A DNA stretch of 64,000 nucleotides from a virus, in the IMG/VR virus record IMGVR_UViG_3300020473_000011, positions 124,001 to 188,000 of that record; one strand, given 5' to 3'. Made by a program: the position numbers and the translations under genes. Below are positions 8,842-37,344 of this stretch, piece by piece (the stretch's first letter is position 1; every line of letters starts with the position of its first letter). The notes below the pieces were generated by a model. The model saw nothing but the letters and a program-made list of their open reading frames with translations. It searched no databases and was not told where the DNA came from.

Positions 8842-9522
8842 ATGACCGATAAAACGACCCTAGTAAAGCAACCTGTCATTGACGTCAGGTCGCTTAAACA
8901 CTATAAGTCCGTCACCGTGACGGAGTACCACCCGAAGACCATCACGGCGCAGTACTTCATCGAGAAGCCACTGTATGCTAAACACGTAAAGGCCGAGGTC
9001 TTCTCAGCCCTGTACAGAGGCAAGTCTGTCGCGTCGCTGATGGACTTAATGAGTCGCGTCGCATCCGTGGTGCGCGTGGGCAATAACATTATTAAGTGCC
9101 GTTATGATCTTGGCCACATGCTTGACGTATATCATGAACACAACGAAGCTGAAAACGCATTAGATGCTGCTATCTTTGGCGAAGCACAACTAGATACACA
9201 AACCGACAGCTCAGCTCCAAAGGTTGTGACGAAGTCAGACTATCTTGAAACGCTCTATAACATTACTCAGCGTAAGCATGCCTTCACAAGTATGGCCTAT
9301 GGGAATACCGACATCGACACGCTAACGAACCTGCTTGACTCGCTGCCTGCTCAATCAGAAGGTATGTACTTGATGAGCGACGTGGGTAAGCTCTTAGTGA
9401 GCCTGACGTCTAAGTCGCTGGTGGATGGCGCAGATTATGTGCTTGACTGCCTTATCGCGGAACTTGAAATAAAGGCGGTTAAGCTGCCACCCACTTTCAT
9501 TAAAACGGTAGATGAACTATGA
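8842..9522 (+). CDS. Hypothetical protein, 226 aa
   Basis: Not recognised. The central part (VVRVGNNIIKCRYDLGHML) resembles a stretch of the protein encoded at 9697-10131 (LVVNNKLVKYRNSLDTVI), so the two may share a domain. It overlaps the next gene by ATGA, indicating translational coupling in a three-gene operon. Confidence 0.7.
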   Translation: MTDKTTLVKQPVIDVRSLKHYKSVTVTEYHPKTITAQYFIEKPLYAKHVKAEVFSALYRGKSVASLMDLMSRVASVVRVGNNIIKCRYDLGHMLDVYHEHNEAENALDAAIFGEAQLDTQTDSSAPKVVTKSDYLETLYNITQRKHAFTSMAYGNTDIDTLTNLLDSLPAQSEGMYLMSDVGKLLVSLTSKSLVDGADYVLDCLIAELEIKAVKLPPTFIKTVDEL

Positions 9523-9719
9523 AGCGACCACAATTAACCCCAGCACAGAAGTCATGCCTTATCGTGGTTTTCACTGATGGACAGTTCCGCTGTGCTAATA
9601 ACTATAAGCCTGCCCAGAAGCTAATAGCGCTGGGCTTAGTTGACTCGACCGAAGATAAGTTCGGTTCTGTCACACTTTTAAGAACGGAGAAGACTGTTGA
9701 GTACGCGCGCACTTTGTAA
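9519..9719 (+). CDS. Small winged-helix-like protein, 66 aa
   Basis: Starts on the ATGA overlap with the previous gene. The pattern LTPAQKSCLIVVFTDG, then a helix (YKPAQKLIALGLV), then a beta hairpin resembles a minimal winged helix-turn-helix. It resembles the protein at 22633-22911, which also begins with an LTxGQK-like helix. It might bind DNA or be an antitoxin-like protein; the call is structural inference only. Confidence 0.55.
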   Translation: MKRPQLTPAQKSCLIVVFTDGQFRCANNYKPAQKLIALGLVDSTEDKFGSVTLLRTEKTVEYARTL

Positions 9720-10131
9720 CCCTATTATAGAAAGGTCTCATACTGAACACACCGTGGTGCTTTGTGACACGGATGACCTACGCGTGACCCGTGAGTCTCA
9801 TGCACGCTTCACGTACTTCACAATACAGTCTGTGTTCAAAAAAGAGCCTGTCTCTATTCAGTGCTATACCGATGCTGCTTACGTTAAACCACTGGCGGAG
9901 CGTATCAAGAAGCTGACGGCCAAAGGTTACTTCGACCCACACCCACATTCGATTAAACGTCTTGGCCAGTACTGTGCGTTCCTTGTTGTGAATAACAAGC
10001 TTGTTAAGTACCGTAATAGTCTCGACACTGTGATCCGCGCTTATTACGAAAGAGACACGAGCGCTCACTTCATGAGTTCATTAGAGTCCATCATGGGTGA
10101 TATGCCTAACCCAGCGGGACTAGACACTTAA
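9697..10131 (+). CDS. Hypothetical protein, 144 aa, TTG start
   Basis: Begins at TTG, 6 nt after GGAGA, and overlaps the previous gene by 23 bp. Unknown function. The region reading CAFLVVNNKLVKYRNSL followed by an acidic/aromatic helix resembles part of the 226-residue protein two genes upstream. The downstream hairpin GCGGGAC / GTCCCGC may end the operon. Confidence 0.65.
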   Translation: MSTRALCNPIIERSHTEHTVVLCDTDDLRVTRESHARFTYFTIQSVFKKEPVSIQCYTDAAYVKPLAERIKKLTAKGYFDPHPHSIKRLGQYCAFLVVNNKLVKYRNSLDTVIRAYYERDTSAHFMSSLESIMGDMPNPAGLDT

Positions 10132-10182
10132 TCCAGATAATTACTCTAACCACCTTCCACCAGCCCTTTGCGGGACTATTAC

Positions 10183-10240
10183 CCTGTCCCGCAGACTATT
10201 ACATCTAATAGCTGTTGAAATCGTTGTACAACGCTGCTAG
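10183..10240 (+). promoter_or_regulatory. Composite promoter region
   Basis: CCTGTCCCGCAG (10183-10194) precedes TTGTACAA (10224-10231) by 41 bp. TATGCA follows the box after 11 bp. Confidence 0.45.
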
Positions 10241-10280
10241 TATGCAATTCATTACTTACTAAGACCGATAAGCGCACACA

Positions 10281-10847
10281 ATGAGCCATGTAGCACTCCC
10301 ACCAGCTAATTATGCTGAACTAGAACAGATGACCGCCACGCCAATTGAAGGTAGCGGCTGGGAAGAGCTGTTCGACTACACAACCTTCGAAGCAAAGATG
10401 TGCTACACAAACGTAGCAAAGGTCATGCTTAATAACCCTGACCGTGAACTACGCTACGTACTGGGCTATATCTGCTCAGGTAACTTAGCAAAGAACATCT
10501 ATATTGCACACGCATGGCTTGAAACGGCTGACGGCACGCTGCTTGACCCAACCTTCGACCTTGTTGAACGTAACCACTTAGACATGGATGATACCCGTTA
10601 CGTCTACTTCCCACGTATTAAGATGACGGAAGCTGAGTTTGATGCGTATTTGGAGAAGATGGAGCTTGAGCGCGGCGCAATGTACGCACCTGATCACAGT
10701 AACATTCAGACATCCCCTGAGCTGGTGGCTAAACTGGCACCGTTTGAAGATTGTGATGGGTTGACCCGTATGATTAACCATGTGGGTCACCACGACCTAG
10801 GCTGGTCTCAAGAAGAGCAGCGCTTCACAAAAGAAAGAGAGGATTAG
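10281..10847 (+). CDS. Cys-His-Asp hydrolase-like protein (possible transglutaminase/papain-like fold)
   Basis: 188 aa. Cys41 in KMCYTNVAKVM, His77 in IAHAWLETADG and Asp89 in LLDPTFD follow the order of a Cys/His/Asp triad and resemble a common phage and bacterial hypothetical family with the pattern HAW-dG-DPT. The fold call (transglutaminase or NlpC/papain-like) is inference from this spacing. The C-terminus (SWSQEEQR-like) is acidic. It is translated together with the following membrane gene, whose ATG lies 1 bp after its stop codon. Confidence 0.65.
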   Translation: MSHVALPPANYAELEQMTATPIEGSGWEELFDYTTFEAKMCYTNVAKVMLNNPDRELRYVLGYICSGNLAKNIYIAHAWLETADGTLLDPTFDLVERNHLDMDDTRYVYFPRIKMTEAEFDAYLEKMELERGAMYAPDHSNIQTSPELVAKLAPFEDCDGLTRMINHVGHHDLGWSQEEQRFTKERED

Positions 10848-15218: not shown

Positions 15219-15446
15219 ATGACAAACAAGAGTAAAATAGCCCTAGGCATCCTATGCGTTGTCCTAGTTATCGGTGGTGTGAGCGCAGCAAGCCGTTATA
15301 TGTCGCGCTGGACATCAACGTTTAGTATTCAGCACAAGATTATTCAACCCAAGGCAGGCAAAGAGTGTGTTGTTGTCTCAACCACCAGCGCTGTTGCGAC
15401 AGACTGCTGGGATGTACCTGCGGCTAAGGTAGGAGGTCGTCACTGA
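15219..15446 (+). CDS. Single-pass membrane protein, 75 aa
   Basis: N-terminal helix (IALGILCVVLVIGGVSAA) after a short positive tail, so a bitopic or secreted protein; the outer part has two cysteines (KECVV and TDCWD). GGGAAAGAGAC precedes the ATG. Its stop overlaps the ATG of the Thg1-like gene (TGATG), so the two are translationally coupled. Function unknown. Confidence 0.65.
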   Translation: MTNKSKIALGILCVVLVIGGVSAASRYMSRWTSTFSIQHKIIQPKAGKECVVVSTTSAVATDCWDVPAAKVGGRH

Positions 15447-16321
15447 TGGACACGAATGAGTTAGCAACCCGAATGAAGATGTACGAGCTGTCTACGCCTC
15501 ATCGGATCCCGAGCCTGATGCCGATTGTCGTCCGTTTGGATGGGCGTAGCTTTTCGACGTTTACGAAAGACATGAACCGTCCCTTTGATACACAGTTCCA
15601 TGAGGCGATGTGTGCTCTCACAGCCTTCTTAGTGGAGCGGACTAACGCAACCATTGGCTACACCCAGTCTGACGAAATCAGCCTTGTCTTTTTGAACACG
15701 AACTATAAGTCAGATCACCTCTTCGGTGGGCGTAAGCAGAAGATTGAGTCATTACTCGCTGGTATGGCCTCAGCCTTCTTCATGACACAAGTTCAGCAAT
15801 ACTGGCCAGATAAGCTGGTGGACTTCCCCCACTTTGATGCGCGTGCGGTTGCCTTCCCCAATGAAGTAGAAGCCTATAACTGTATTGTATGGCGCGAACA
15901 GGATGCAACTAAGAACAGCGTTCAGTTACTGGGTCAGTCCTACTATAAGCACAGCCGCTTGGTGTTGCTGTCTAACAAAGCGATTCAACACGCGCTCTTT
16001 ACTGAGCACAACGTTAATTGGAACGACCTAGAACCATGGCAAAAGCGCGGTACCTACTTTCAGCAACGTAAGGTAGACGGCGTTCGCTGTGCTGTGGCTC
16101 TCGATATGCCACCCATCACGCGTTGCAGTAATGCCATGGGTGTCTTGCTCCGAGGTGAGCAGCCTGCTGAGTTATTCATGAGCTGGCCAAAACCCCTTGA
16201 TACGAATGAGGCTCGTATGGAAGACGGTACGTTAGCTAGTCTTGAGAAGAGAAAGCAGCAAGTTCTTGCGTCTATGGGCGTGCCATCAGACATTATCGGT
16301 GCGAACGGAGGGTATAAGTAA
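15446..16321 (+). CDS. Thg1-like tRNA 3'-5' polymerase (tRNAHis guanylyltransferase family)
   Basis: Family member that adds nucleotides to tRNA 5' ends in the reverse (3'-5') direction. Visible catalytic features: VVRLDGRSFSTF with metal-binding Asp32, YTQSDEISLVF with Asp76/Glu77, FDARAVAFP (130-138) and WQKRGTYF. The HINNLYN motif of eukaryotic Thg1 is replaced by DATKNSVQ, as in the Thg1-like (TLP) group that repairs truncated tRNAs. Length 291 aa is normal. It overlaps both neighbours by one base. Bacterial tRNAHis already encodes G-1, so repair of damaged tRNAs is the more likely role. Confidence 0.92.
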   Translation: MDTNELATRMKMYELSTPHRIPSLMPIVVRLDGRSFSTFTKDMNRPFDTQFHEAMCALTAFLVERTNATIGYTQSDEISLVFLNTNYKSDHLFGGRKQKIESLLAGMASAFFMTQVQQYWPDKLVDFPHFDARAVAFPNEVEAYNCIVWREQDATKNSVQLLGQSYYKHSRLVLLSNKAIQHALFTEHNVNWNDLEPWQKRGTYFQQRKVDGVRCAVALDMPPITRCSNAMGVLLRGEQPAELFMSWPKPLDTNEARMEDGTLASLEKRKQQVLASMGVPSDIIGANGGYK

Positions 16322-24659: not shown

Positions 24660-26772
24660 GCGTCACGCCTACTTACTAAACCAAACTTGATACCTCTTAG
24701 ATTTACCTGCGTAGCACAGACGTGCTCGCGCGTGTGTCACGTAATCACGCCCACTACAAAGCAAACCCGATCACACTCGCCTCAATAAAGCTAACTATAC
24801 CCGCATGACCTCGGGTCAGAGTGCTAAGCGAACCGCAATTCGTTGTACAACACTTTCGTTTTTATAGTGGTATATACCCTGCCCTGTCCTCGGGTCAGAG
24901 TATAGAGAAGCTTTCGGGTGCCCTTTACGAACTTCCTACTGCCCCACCGATATTAGATAAACGCCTGTTTAAAGGTCACTATAGTGGTTCTTTGGCTTTC
25001 CGTAAGTGACCCGAGGTCACTTAGCTGTGGTAGTGGACTCGTATAAGCAGGTCTTAGTGAACACTGTACAACGTTTTATCTGTCGGATCGTAAGGCTAGC
25101 ACTCGGCTAGCTGCGCCTTCTCGACACTGCGGTTAACTAAGGGGTGCTTGTAATACATGGGGATGTGACCCAAGGTCAGGCTCAAAGGTCGAGGTGAGGG
25201 TCAACAGTCTCACCCAACTGGCAGCGTTGTACAAGCATTGCCTAAACCCCTGCGCCGCAGTGGGCTAATTTTTCGTACCGACGATGTGAGGGTTGAGGCG
25301 ACCGTACGCCAGAAAAACCTTTAATTTCATACAAACTCTATATGTATACGCCTAGACACACTGCAAAAGTAGGCGTCATGGTGTCGGCTGAACGGTTTAT
25401 TTTGGGTTACACACTGCGGCACAGGGGATTTCGTTGAATCAGAGTGTTAGGCAAAGTGAGCTAATACCTTATGTAGCAGGGGTATAGAGTGGAACCATAA
25501 TGACAACCCCTCGCTTCGCTCGGTTTAATCACGGCTTAGTCGCAGCTTTAATTACTAGTTTCCGTCGGTTCAGTAACGTTTTTGATGGCGGTTAGGGTTG
25601 TGCTGTTACTGATATTAGATGTGCATTGGTGCGTAGTCTGCTACTCATTAGTGGTTCTGCTTGTCGATTAGTGAGTAGAGTGTTACTCATAGTGAGAAGC
25701 TATTTGTGCCTATCTATTTACATTAATGGTTCTAGTATTGCTCTCTTGCTGTCTAGTTGTGGTCTTATAGTTGCGTCAGTTAATGGTGCTGGTTTGCATT
25801 CTCTGGTTTTACTTGGCGTTACTGAGTGTCTACTTTGGTTGCAAATATGATGCACGGTTATCGCATTGCTTGTATTGCTTGAGTGTATGTAGTTATGTAT
25901 AGGGGAAATGCAAACAGGGTTTTACTAACTTTCTAGTGTTGCAGTGATATTCCGCAACTGGGTAGTTGAACCTCAGTATAGGAAAAAGTGCGTGTGACCT
26001 CGGGTCATATTGGGGTGTTTTGTGTCTACTTTTGCGATTCTAGACACTGATTTCGGTCTGACCTCGGGTCATGGGTCACTATTTAGCGGTGTATTGTACA
26101 ATGCTTTGGGGTTGTGCCCTCGGGTCAGATAACCTTTAACTATATAGGTTTCTTGCCGAATCTCGGTATAACCGCACTGGCGGCGGCAGGTTAATAACAG
26201 TAGCGATGCCGCTTGTTAGTTCATAGTGTGACGTGGAATGTTTATAGTGAGCTTTATATGTGGTCGTACATTAATAGTAACGTGTATGTATACGTATATA
26301 GAATGAATAGTAGAATGTCTGGAATAGCTTATAGTAATAGGCTTGTATGTATCTATAGAATGTAATGTATATGTGCATACTAATATTATGTATGTGTACA
26401 TGTGTAATATAGTAGATGTAGTTATAGTGTCTATAGTGAGCATAGTGTTGTTCATAGTATTTATGTTCTTACTGAGGCAATGAGTTATCGACTATCCTGT
26501 GCGGGCGCGCAAGTGTTCTTTCTTTTTAGTGGAAGGTGGCTGCTTTCTTGTGTTGGCCTGCCCTCGGGTCAGGGTGCTTGTGGGTGTTCTTTTCGTTGTA
26601 CAATGGATTTTGACTGTCCTGTGCGGGGCGCTGCGGGCTTTTCTCGTATGAAGATGAGTGCTTGTGTGGGTTTTACTTTTTAGATGGCTTGTGGGGCGTC
26701 TGAGGGCGTTTTTACGTTTTTGAGGGGGTGTGGCGACTATCCTGTGCGGCCGCCAAGCGGAAGTAGAGGCGC
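24660..26772. other. Gene-free, repeat-rich 2.1-kb region at a strand switch
   Basis: Plus- and minus-strand gene blocks converge here. It contains ten TGACC-CGGGTCA-type palindromes, three CCTGTGCGGG elements, and TTGTACAA boxes at 24843, 25064 (CTGTACAA), 25227, 26094 and 26596. It also has a strongly G/T-rich plus strand from about 25560 to 26760, and an AT-rich patch (26216-26470) with many ATAGT pentamers. Open frames in it have low-complexity translations and no ribosome sites. It may be a replication, packaging or recombination region, or hold a long structured RNA; nothing in the sequence decides this. Confidence 0.5.
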
Positions 26773-34415: not shown

Positions 34416-35501
34416 CTAGGGGGCGAGAACTATAGCAAGGTTCTTCATCAATTTCCAGCTGATTAACGACGGAATCCCGCTGCAACGCTCGTATTGTGAC
34501 TTGATTGGCGTCTCATTATCAAAGCCCCATGTATCGGGTACCGTTTGCAGGCGCAGACTCTCGCGAACAGTGAAGCGACGGCTTGACCCATCAGACATAC
34601 GCATGATCTGTGCAGCGTTCTTACCCATCGGACTCGACATAATGGTGCGTGATGGACGGTCTTTGCTGATCACAGACAGGAACGTCGTGCGGCCACCCGA
34701 TGAATAGTAGGCTCCAAGCATGAAGTCTTTTTGGTCTTGTTCAGGTAGATTACGCCAGTTACCACCTTCGGGAACCTTATGTACAAACGGTTTCTCATCG
34801 TTACGCAGTGTCCATTTCTCGTGGTACTCATGGTTATTGTGACCGTCGGGCGTCTCAGGTAAACCTTTTAGTGCATCGGCCAGCGTGAATTGCACAGGGC
34901 TTTTCTCTGGGAACTGGAACTCACCCTCAAGGTCTTTACGTACCCCAACGATAAAGACGCGCTCTCGGCGCTGGGGCACACCATACTCGGAGCAATCAAT
35001 AACTTGCCACTTAACTTTGAACTCGGTAGACAGGCGCTCAATCATTTCCTCAAAGAAAGGCATATTCTTGCGGTCAACGAGACCACGCACGTTTTCTATT
35101 AGGAACCCTTTAGGCTTCTTGTATAGGTAGCAATCAACGAGTAGTTCAGCAAGGTTACCATTCTTTTCGCAAGCAGCGCCGTTACCCTCTCCTGATCGTG
35201 ACCATGGTTTACAGGGGAATCCGCCTGTGTAGACGTCAGCATCAGGGATGTCGTCAAAGTTAAGTGTCTTTGCATTGAGTACAACGGCAACGTTGGCAAT
35301 GTTCTTGTTAAAGTTACGTACGGCGTGTTTGTTATTATCAAAGGCGAAGATTGTTTCAAAGCCTGCGTACTCTGTCCCAATTGCCCCCACACCTGCACCG
35401 CAGTAGAAGTCCACAACTGTTAACCCGTTCTTTGGTAACTGGGTCATTTGCTCACCATTAGGGCAGCCGTGCAGCTGCGCCTCGTGCACATAATTGTTCA
35501 T
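34416..35501 (-). CDS. DNA (cytosine-5) methyltransferase
   Basis: C5-cytosine methyltransferase, 361 aa. Motif I FYCGAGVGAIG (32-42), motif IV GGFPCKPWS with catalytic Cys97, motif VI ENVRG (136-140), motif VIII PQRRERVFIVG, and motif IX RRFTVRESLRLQ are all present. Motif X, normally GNAVP or GNSIP, reads CSGIPS, so two residues of the AdoMet-binding edge differ. It may protect the genome from restriction. No nuclease gene is adjacent. The leader ATGAGACCAAGAT precedes the ATG. The target site cannot be read from sequence. Confidence 0.93.
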   Translation of the reverse strand: MNNYVHEAQLHGCPNGEQMTQLPKNGLTVVDFYCGAGVGAIGTEYAGFETIFAFDNNKHAVRNFNKNIANVAVVLNAKTLNFDDIPDADVYTGGFPCKPWSRSGEGNGAACEKNGNLAELLVDCYLYKKPKGFLIENVRGLVDRKNMPFFEEMIERLSTEFKVKWQVIDCSEYGVPQRRERVFIVGVRKDLEGEFQFPEKSPVQFTLADALKGLPETPDGHNNHEYHEKWTLRNDEKPFVHKVPEGGNWRNLPEQDQKDFMLGAYYSSGGRTTFLSVISKDRPSRTIMSSPMGKNAAQIMRMSDGSSRRFTVRESLRLQTVPDTWGFDNETPIKSQYERCSGIPSLISWKLMKNLAIVLAP

Positions 35502-35834
35502 ATCTTGGTCTCATTTCTTAGTCAAATTAAGTAGCTCTCTGTAGCTACTTTTTTAAGTCTATCAGTTTTGTTTGTGAGGACCAACTAACTTGTTAGATCT
35601 TTACTGGTGGGGTTGTAGTGCGGGATTGCTGAGTATTTATACTCAAATCGTTGTACAAAACTACTTGCGGTGCAGGCGATTTCGTGTACACTATATACTC
35701 GTAAAAAGGCTAAAACGTGACTAGTAACTTGCCGTAAAAATGTACTAAGATAAAGGGACTAGCTTTGCGACCAGCACTTCAAGATCGTGTTAGCCGTTAG
35801 ATGGATTTAAGAAAAAGAATTAAGGTAGACCGAT
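35502..35834. promoter_or_regulatory. Divergent control region between methyltransferase and diguanylate cyclase genes
   Basis: No gene seen. Holds TTGTACAA (35651-35658) and, 30 bp on, GTGTACACTATATACT, with a good -10 (TATACT). The cyclase leader is about 135 nt. It does not resemble the known c-di-GMP riboswitch classes by eye. Confidence 0.4.
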
Positions 35835-36713
35835 ATGACACACGCAATGAACCCCGAAAATTTGGGGTTGTTAAAGAAGACCCTCGATTCGCTGCCCGAT
35901 GGCGTGCTGGTCGTTTCTCCTGACCGAAAAATTGTTTATGCGAATGACCGATTTATCGCTATGTGGGGGATCCCAAGCACCGTCATGGGGACTCATGACG
36001 ACAGCAAGATACTTGATTATGTTGAGGCGCAGGTCACTGACCTTGAGACTTTCCGAAAGCAGGTAGAGGATTTATACGAGACACGCCGCGAAACAGAAGA
36101 TGAGATCCATCTTACTGATGGCCGTGTTTTTCTCCGCCGAGGGACGTACCACGTTAATGCTGAGGGTGAGACCGCCCACATTTGGGTGTTCTCCGATATA
36201 ACCAGCCTAAAAGCATTTGAGCGCTGTTCGCTTACTGGCGTATTTAACCGCCGTAAGTTCGATGAAGAGTTCGGCTTGCGCCTGCTTGGCATGACAGACA
36301 AGGATATTATTGGCGTAGCGCTACTAGACCTTGATAACTTCAAGCAGTACAACGACAGCTATGGCCACCAGCAAGGCGACCGCTTACTTTCAGAGGTTGG
36401 ACGCTTGTTCCTTGGACGCCTACGTCGTAGAGGCGACACAGCTTATCGTATTGGGGGAGAAGAGTTCCTACTAGTCTGTAAGTGCCGCACTGAGCAACAC
36501 CTGTTTGATTTCATTGATTCAATACGCGCTGATGTTCAGCGCCTTGGCCGTGAGCATGAGAAGAACGCACCTTATAATGTCGTGACCTTTTCGGCAGGCG
36601 TTGGTTTCATACAGGGCAGCGCGAAGGCTGACTACGTGTTTGCCCAAGTAGATAAGGCGCTCTACGCGGCAAAAGAAAAAGGCCGCAACCAACTCGTAAG
36701 GGCTAAGATTTAG
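35835..36713 (+). CDS. PAS-GGDEF diguanylate cyclase
   Basis: Makes the second messenger cyclic di-GMP from two GTP. Residues about 10-125 form a PAS sensor domain (DSLPDGVLVVSPDRKIVYAN, ending VFSDITSLKAFE). Residues 130-292 form a GGDEF domain with LTGVFNRRKFDEE, LDLDNFKQYNDSYGH (Asp165/Asp167) and the active-site GGEEF at 207-211. RxxD inhibitory site R198-D201 sits five residues before it, so feedback control is expected. No membrane segment. AAGGTAGACCGAT precedes the ATG and a terminator follows. A complete, apparently active cyclase on a phage-type genome is unusual. Confidence 0.95.
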   Translation: MTHAMNPENLGLLKKTLDSLPDGVLVVSPDRKIVYANDRFIAMWGIPSTVMGTHDDSKILDYVEAQVTDLETFRKQVEDLYETRRETEDEIHLTDGRVFLRRGTYHVNAEGETAHIWVFSDITSLKAFERCSLTGVFNRRKFDEEFGLRLLGMTDKDIIGVALLDLDNFKQYNDSYGHQQGDRLLSEVGRLFLGRLRRRGDTAYRIGGEEFLLVCKCRTEQHLFDFIDSIRADVQRLGREHEKNAPYNVVTFSAGVGFIQGSAKADYVFAQVDKALYAAKEKGRNQLVRAKI

Positions 36714-36735: not shown

Positions 36736-36766
36736 AAAAAGCCAGCATTACGCTGGCTCTCTTTTT
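36736..36766 (+). terminator. Intrinsic terminator of the cyclase gene
   Basis: AAAAGCCAGC-ATTAC-GCTGGCTCTCTTTTT, 25 bp after the stop. Confidence 0.85.
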
Positions 36767-36831: not shown

Positions 36832-37344
36832 TTATGCGGCTTTTTGAAATTCAATGTCTTTAAGTGATTCAATTGTAGCCTTGCTTAGCTTAATGTCTTT
36901 TTGTGCATGAAATGCGACGGCTAACCAAACGAGCTTAAAGTTAGCCACACTCGGAACAGGTTTACCGAGCTGAGCTGCGTCCCACTCATCTTTAGACTCG
37001 AAGTCGCAAGCACATGCGCCTTCTAGATGCTCGGGAGCCTCGCGTTCAACCGTATGCCCATGCTTAGCCTCTTCGGTTTCTAAGTGTGTCCAAACCTTTT
37101 CCAGTAACTCGGTGTTACCTTCTTGTTCCATGATGTAGGCATCGACGTCTTGGCGTAGCAAGCCCATCACACGTTGTGCGAGGTCTTCCCAGTCTTCTGA
37201 GAGTGCATCAGCAAAGCGCCACGTATTCTCAACAGTAGGCTCTAGCATAAGCGTCGTGTAGATGCTCGAAGCACGGTCAAACCGCGCCTGTGCAAGCTGC
37301 TCGGGTGTCTGGCTATCACGTGTGTCGTCGGTCGGAAACATCAT
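36832..37344 (-). CDS. Hypothetical protein, 170 aa
   Basis: Unrecognised acidic helical protein (PEQLAQARFDRASSIYTTLM), with CACDFESKDEWDAAQLGKP in the second half. AAGGAGCTGTACT precedes the double ATG. Last of a five-gene minus-strand group. Confidence 0.7.
   Translation of the reverse strand: MMFPTDDTRDSQTPEQLAQARFDRASSIYTTLMLEPTVENTWRFADALSEDWEDLAQRVMGLLRQDVDAYIMEQEGNTELLEKVWTHLETEEAKHGHTVEREAPEHLEGACACDFESKDEWDAAQLGKPVPSVANFKLVWLAVAFHAQKDIKLSKATIESLKDIEFQKAA

What the first reader, a model, noticed from the sequence alone, without database searches (positions are those of the whole stretch)
35835..36713. Complete PAS-GGDEF diguanylate cyclase on a phage-type genome
GGEEF active site, metal-binding aspartates and RxxD inhibitory site are intact, with a PAS sensor in front and private regulatory and terminator signals. 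Raising cyclic di-GMP during infection could shift the host toward a sessile state, alter receptors, or interfere with cyclic-nucleotide defence.
Basis: partly seen in the sequence, partly recalled or inferred. Interest (0 to 1): 0.66.

Follow-up and report, generated by a model that had tools for sequence, protein, structure and literature searches.

The report
Jumbo-phage c-di-GMP synthase, shortened linker
A giant bacterial virus carries, under one of its own promoters, an apparently intact enzyme for making the bacterial "settle down" signal c-di-GMP; such viral genes are already known, but in this one the piece that usually lets the sensor switch the enzyme on and off is unusually short.

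Summary
The gene is real. Window 35835-36713 (+) encodes a 292-aa PAS-GGDEF protein with every catalytic and product-inhibition residue of a canonical diguanylate cyclase (DGC). It lies about 160 kb into a 281,557-bp virus record that also carries contractile-tail and baseplate genes. Its codon usage fits the phage genes. Its upstream region is one of five copies of a phage-specific promoter built on an operator-like palindrome (TTGTACAA, 124 copies against about 6 expected). It is therefore a phage gene, not host contamination. The regulatory signals are not private: the promoter belongs to a phage-wide family, and the terminator is shared with a convergent gene. And 'complete' holds for catalysis only: the coiled coil that normally couples sensor to GGDEF is missing (PAS DIT to wide turn 10 residues, against 18, 25, 32... 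in 54 of 62 surveyed linkers), and the near-invariant wide-turn Asp is Cys. I infer an active, product-inhibited c-di-GMP synthase with weak or unconventional sensor control. Viral DGCs are already reported (SP-15, phage G, a Cariaco Mu-like virus), and I found an independent one in an unrelated jumbo-size contig. No activity or phenotype is shown; the host effect cannot be decided from sequence.

The parts
35835..36713 (+). PAS-GGDEF diguanylate cyclase, 292 aa: PAS about 13-126, short linker 121-131, GGDEF 132-286
35646..35658 (+). Operator-like element AATCGTTGTACAA, left part of the phage-wide palindrome AAATCRTTGTACAAYGATTT
   Evidence: TTGTACAA 124 copies against about 6 expected; 80 of 124 noncoding
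35665..35692 (+). Promoter-like -35 TTGCGG (35665-35670) and -10 TACACT (35687-35692), 16-nt spacer; one of five class-B copies in 237.6 kb of the phage
   Evidence: same -10 at G000:86798
35693..35834 (+). Predicted 5' leader of about 140 nt; no Rfam riboswitch and no unusual fold
35822..35825 (+). AAGG ribosome-binding-like site
   Evidence: sequence
36740..36758 (.). Bidirectional terminator hairpin AGCCAGC-ATTAC-GCTGGCT with A/U tracts on both sides, shared with the convergent gene 36832-37344 (-)
36195..36236 (+). Codons for D121-I-T to C131-S-L-T: the shortened linker and Cys-substituted wide turn
34416..35501 (-). Divergent neighbour: C5-cytosine DNA methyltransferase (context, not part of the enzyme)
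36832..37344 (-). Convergent neighbour, no family match (context)

Best explanation
A jumbo myovirus carries an accessory gene for a soluble, canonical diguanylate cyclase. The phage transcribes it from its own class-B promoter. The enzyme condenses two GTP into c-di-GMP as a homodimer, limited by product binding at the RxxD I-site, and so raises host c-di-GMP during infection. Because the coiled coil that normally carries a register switch from sensor to GGDEF is missing and the wide-turn Asp is Cys, sensor control is probably weak, constitutive or of another kind. The effect is probably on the host's surface and motility state (adhesion up, flagella down, receptors altered). Shown: gene, motifs, promoter family, linker anomaly, phage context. 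Inferred: enzymatic activity, mode of control, host effect.
For: All catalytic, guanine-binding and I-site residues are intact, and D182 of GHQQGD is kept, as in c-di-GMP-forming rather than cGAMP-forming (Hypr) GGDEFs (the Hypr signature position is from my own knowledge). AlphaFold model pLDDT 94.8; the GGDEF part matches WspR, SadC and PleD at Z 22-25, rmsd 1.5-2.4 over about 160 residues. No transmembrane-like segment (highest 19-residue hydropathy 1.13). Phage promoter family: 5 copies against 0.03 expected. Codon usage ranks 16th of 74 phage ORFs, GC3 0.54 against 0.50 +/- 0.06. No EAL or PilZ in the record, so the product would act on host receptors. Linker: 54 of 62 linkers on the 18+7n ladder, four at 14, only this one at 10; modelled linker helix 5 residues against 15 in an 18-linker homologue. 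Host c-di-GMP does change infection outcome elsewhere: N4 infection needs it (PMC8669472, PMC7553319), and it shifts the phiVP882 lysis-lysogeny decision on surfaces (PMC11315295).
Against: No activity was measured. GGDEF domains usually need a dimerising helix: one isolated linker-GGDEF construct was inactive until its coiled coil was stabilised (PMC12805367). The short linker and CxLT could therefore mean low activity. The host is unknown, so c-di-GMP effectors in it are assumed. None of 25 phage records that share another gene with this phage has a GGDEF, so the gene is dispensable across relatives, although most of those records are fragments.
Confidence: 0.6

Rival explanations
1. Catalytically intact but poorly active enzyme: the acquired bacterial DGC has lost its coupling helix and is drifting, kept as neutral cargo.
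For: Off-ladder linker and near-unique CxLT; long branch 1.65 in the GGDEF tree; absent from 25 records sharing another gene.
Against: The ORF is intact, every catalytic and I-site residue is kept although the rest has diverged to about 40% identity or less, and it sits behind a phage-type promoter. CxLT also occurs in a chromosomal GAF-GGDEF protein with an intact active site (L159).
Confidence: 0.2
2. Superinfection exclusion or biofilm-like retention: c-di-GMP made early alters surface glycans, pili or flagella so that other phages cannot adsorb to the infected cell.
For: c-di-GMP controls phage receptors in E. coli (PMC8669472, PMC7553319). Other class-B promoters lie before small ORFs and a helicase, a setting like early or accessory genes.
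Against: In the studied case c-di-GMP increases, not decreases, sensitivity to N4. Timing and host are unknown.
Confidence: 0.3
3. Counter-defence: c-di-GMP competes with or dilutes cyclic-nucleotide signals of host immunity.
For: The phage adds a cyclic dinucleotide, and jumbo phages do carry counter-nucleotide systems (PMC7824862).
Against: Known viral strategies deplete or sponge signals. From my own knowledge, some bacterial STING effectors are triggered by c-di-GMP, which would be self-defeating. No other nucleotide-defence gene was found beside it.
Confidence: 0.06
4. Contaminating host segment assembled into a virus contig.
For: Many GGDEF hits in phage collections are host fragments or odd records.
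Against: About 160 kb into a 281.6-kb record with three tail-sheath genes and baseplate genes; matching codon usage; phage-specific promoter family; most flanking ORFs without bacterial family matches.
Confidence: 0.03

Closest known systems
Bacillus phage SP-15 diguanylate cyclase SP15_150 (AMM44948.1)
   Same: GGDEF enzyme with intact motif on a large phage genome
   Different: 183 aa, no PAS, DxLT intact, in a cell-wall glycan gene cluster; 31% identity
Bacillus phage G gp350 (annotated GGDEF motif diguanylate cyclase)
   Same: GGDEF gene of a giant phage
   Different: No recognisable PAS, DxLT intact, 26% identity, different tree neighbourhood
PAS-PAS-GGDEF of a 279-kb IMG/VR contig (L069/L078)
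   Same: Phage-borne sensor DGC, between terminase/portal-like genes and tail genes
   Different: 466 aa, two PAS domains, normal 18-residue linker and DxLT; not a close relative
Mu-like virus DGC of the Cariaco Basin (PMC7785012)
   Same: Published virus-encoded DGC with a predicted promoter
   Different: Mu-like, not jumbo; sequence not compared here
LOV-activated DGC MsLadC (PDB 8c05) and PA0861 PAS-GGDEF-EAL (5xgd)
   Same: Best full-length fold matches, PAS-type sensor followed by GGDEF
   Different: MsLadC linker 35 residues from the DIT Asp to the DxLT Leu (PMC10396304); here 13 by the same measure; no LOV Cys motif seen; no EAL here
Rec-GGDEF 'group 0' (PMC8041772) and PadC -4 linkers (PMC9587094)
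   Same: DGCs whose linker breaks the heptad rule; group 0 also lacks the DxLT Asp
   Different: Other sensor domains; this one is 8 residues below the 18-residue class and has Cys

Membership tests
Canonical GGDEF diguanylate cyclase | GG(D/E)EF signature in a GGDEF domain over the curated cut-off | tested here: met
   PF00990 E 6.8e-35, 120.6 bits against 23.8; GGEEF 207-211
Canonical GGDEF diguanylate cyclase | Metal-binding Asp and guanine/substrate residues (DxDxFKxxND, GHxxGD) | tested here: met
   D165, D167, F169, K170, N173, D174, G181, D182
Canonical GGDEF diguanylate cyclase | RxxD I-site five residues before GGEEF | tested here: met
   R198-R-G-D201
Canonical GGDEF diguanylate cyclase | Wide-turn DxLT motif (common, but not decisive for membership) | tested here: not met
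   C131-S-L-T; the only other Cys in about 200 surveyed domains is L159, a GAF-GGDEF with an intact active site
Canonical GGDEF diguanylate cyclase | c-di-GMP synthesis from GTP | not testable with these tools
   needs an enzyme assay
Coiled-coil (register-switched) PAS/LOV/Rec-GGDEF sensor DGC | Linker helix of heptad-ladder length | tested here: not met
   10 residues against 18+7n in 54 of 62; modelled helix 5 against 15 residues
PAS sensor domain | PAS fold in front of the effector | tested here: met
   PAS_8 and PAS_4 over cut-off; full-length alignment to 8c05 and 5xgd
PAS sensor domain | Bound ligand or cofactor | not testable with these tools
   ligand unknown
Phage-encoded gene (not host contamination) | Embedded in a phage genome under phage-type signals, with phage-like composition | tested here: met
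Anti-CBASS/Thoeris counter-defence | Degrades or sequesters immune cyclic nucleotides | not testable with these tools
   no phosphodiesterase or sponge domain matched in this protein; function needs an assay

The most novel reading that the evidence does not exclude
A phage DGC reshaped by evolution to be independent of the host's signals: the sensor-coupling coiled coil has been removed (linker 18 to 10, DxLT to CxLT) so that the enzyme works constitutively, or is switched by direct PAS-GGDEF contact, whenever the phage promoter fires. This would be a new linkage class among PAS-GGDEF enzymes and a dedicated viral c-di-GMP override.
Probability: 0.25. Interest if true: 0.65.

Novelty: new member of a known kind. 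Interest (0 to 1): 0.4.

Why it matters
Viral DGCs are usually listed as auxiliary metabolic genes with a guess about biofilms. This case ties one to a phage-wide promoter system and shows a testable structural departure: is a DGC without its coiled-coil switch constitutive? A positive answer would say that some large phages override the host's motile-sessile decision directly, and would provide a natural minimal-linker DGC for studying how sensors control GGDEF enzymes.

Tried and rejected
Host contamination: rejected on position, codon usage and promoter family. A c-di-GMP self-regulation circuit (riboswitch in the leader, PilZ or EAL in the record): no Rfam hit in the window, no PilZ or EAL in the record, and the leader fold is ordinary. 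A phage-specific DGC lineage: the tree gives no supported clade with SP-15, phage G or L069. Close relatives: no nucleotide match among 50,697 phage records; a single-protein scan of IMG/VR found one 37% partial match; sheath and baseplate queries found no close viral contig. First linker survey with a loose pattern mis-registered some rows and was redone more strictly (a few loose rows remain there too). Terminase_6N search of the record: none, so the terminase was not identified. A macro-domain reading of the class-B-driven ORF L004:2887-3450 was suspected by eye but has no Pfam match and is not claimed. The relatives option does not work for virus records.

Full report
OBSERVATION. The ORF 35835-36713 (+) is present as stated and encodes 292 aa. 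Pfam gives PF00990 GGDEF at 132-286 (E 6.8e-35, 120.6 bits against a 23.8 cut-off) and several PAS models at 13-126 (best E 4.4e-8). The key residues are D165-x-D167-x-F-K-x-x-N173-D174, G177-H-x-x-G-D182, R198-x-x-D201 (I-site) and G207-GEEF. They are invariant or nearly invariant in a 60-sequence alignment, apart from the I-site, whose conservation was not scored. An AlphaFold model has mean pLDDT 94.8. Its GGDEF part aligns with WspR, SadC, DgcZ and PleD at Z 22-25, and over the whole length the best matches are the LOV-activated cyclase 8c05 and PAS-GGDEF-EAL PA0861.

IS IT A PHAGE GENE? The window is bases 124001-188000 of a 281,557-bp virus record, and this is its only GGDEF. The record encodes three tail-sheath proteins (one is 39.5% identical to Rhizobium phage RHph_TM39 sheath), baseplate-type proteins (DUF4815, phrog_877, phrog_5986), a 677-aa protein about 50% identical to proteins of Ackermannviridae-type and other large phages (the family name is my own knowledge), Thg1 and a CCA-adding-type enzyme. 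The DGC's codon usage is not an outlier (16th of 74 ORFs; GC3 0.54 against 0.50 +/- 0.06). No phage record in INPHARED matches the surrounding 25 kb at the nucleotide level. Of 25 IMG/VR records sharing the 677-aa gene, none has a GGDEF, while all five positive controls do; the gene is accessory in this wider group, with the caveat that many records are fragments.

REGULATION. In the 237.6 kb that I read, the octamer TTGTACAA occurs 124 times against about 6 expected (maximum 11 in 30 second-order Markov genomes), and 80 of the 124 are in noncoding DNA against 13.7 expected. The consensus is a 20-bp palindrome, AAATCRTTGTACAAYGATTT. Two arrangements recur. In class A, TTGTAC itself sits 16-18 nt before TATAGT-like hexamers (9 copies, 0-2 in shuffled controls). 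In class B, the palindrome is followed by TTGYGSYGCAG and then a -10-like hexamer (5 copies, mean 0.03 in controls). The class-B pattern was written after seeing these sites, so the control shows only that they are not chance words. The DGC has a class-B copy at 35646-35692 (AATCGTTGTACAAAACTACTTGCGGTGCAGGCGATTTCGTGTACACT). The other class-B sites precede a 187-aa ORF of unknown family, arrays of small ORFs and a helicase. Whether the palindrome is an operator or part of the promoter proper is not decided. The 140-nt leader has no Rfam match and no unusual structure. The hairpin at 36740-36758 is a credible terminator (fold z -3.0) but has A and U tracts on both sides and lies between convergent genes, so it serves both. 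In raw numbers, terminator-like sites in the region are no more frequent than in shuffles (7 against 6.0).

THE UNUSUAL PART. In PAS, LOV, phytochrome and Rec DGCs the sensor is joined to GGDEF by a parallel coiled coil whose length mostly comes in steps of seven and which switches register (PMC8041772, PMC10396304, PMC9587094, PMC12805367). I surveyed the loci fetched here. Of 62 linkers measured from the PAS DIT Asp to the wide-turn Asp, 54 fall on 18, 25, 32, 39 or 46; four are 14, all from Sulfurimonas, equal to the known '-4' class of phytochrome cyclases; three are longer irregular cases; the phage protein alone is 10. It also has Cys in place of the wide-turn Asp. Among about 200 domains the only other genuine case is a Cytobacillus GAF-GGDEF protein; three further non-Asp calls in that table are misregistered matches by inspection. 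The AlphaFold model shows a five-residue helix (123-127) where a control model of an 18-linker homologue has a 15-residue helix (109-123). The DgcR authors note that Rec-GGDEF 'group 0' also breaks the length rule and lacks the Asp, and suggest another linkage and activation mechanism for it (PMC8041772). I infer the same here. The codon TGT differs from the two Asp codons at two or three positions, so a single sequencing error does not explain it.

MECHANISM. Most likely the phage expresses a soluble DGC that raises host c-di-GMP, limited by product inhibition and with weak or unconventional sensor control. Support for an effect of c-di-GMP on infection exists in other systems (N4 in E. coli: PMC8669472, PMC7553319; phiVP882 in Vibrio: PMC11315295). 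Direction and benefit are unknown here. Low activity is a serious rival, since GGDEF domains usually need a dimerising helix (PMC12805367).

KNOWN OR NEW. Virus-borne DGCs are already reported: Bacillus phages SP-15 and G, uncultured Caudovirales proteins, and a Mu-like virus of the Cariaco Basin (PMC7785012). An IMG/VR scan found 446 stretches encoding relatives, many of them probably host-like or prophage. I found a clear independent case: a 466-aa PAS-PAS-GGDEF between terminase/portal-like and tail genes of a 279-kb contig (those gene roles are my reading of the sequence). The GGDEF tree puts P0001 on a long branch weakly near Sulfurimonas and Vibrio enzymes, not with other phage cyclases. 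The finding is a new member of a known kind with an unusual coupling region.

Noticed in passing
G000:44001-281557 (whole window included); for example window 20777, 21807, 22200, 35654: Phage-wide 20-bp palindrome AAATCRTTGTACAAYGATTT (124 TTGTACAA cores against about 6 expected), mostly intergenic and often a few tens of bases before genes; likely operator or special promoter element of an unknown regulator.
   Followed up: partly
window 15446-16321 (+): tRNA-His guanylyltransferase Thg1 (phrog_4717 E 4e-73, PF04446 E 1.2e-31) in a jumbo phage; Thg1 is a 3'-5' polymerase. ARAGORN found no tRNA genes in the window.
   Followed up: partly
L007:3543-5420 (-), L008:12154-13374 (-), L008:13389-15305 (-): Three tail-sheath-like genes in one phage record, two of them adjacent.
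   Followed up: no
L069:490-10709: Unrelated 279-kb contig: terminase-like and portal-like ORFs, a 466-aa PAS-PAS-GGDEF, tail-like ORFs and a radical-SAM-like ORF (9438-10709) side by side; roles read by eye.
   Followed up: partly
L004:2887-3450 (+): 187-aa ORF behind a class-B promoter looks macro-domain-like by eye (GFPLIGCGRAGGDW) but has no Pfam match.
   Followed up: partly
phages collection, MW495066.1 (L009): Record 'Microcystis phage MaAM05' carries pgi, sufS and hemW beside its GGDEF gene and looks more like bacterial DNA than phage; several other GGDEF hits in the phage collection also look like host contigs.
   Followed up: no
window about 24660-26770: Longer stretch with few ORFs and a sharp change in GC and AT skew (GC skew 0.19 at 25-27 kb), where the main coding strand switches; possible replication or transcription boundary.
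   Followed up: no
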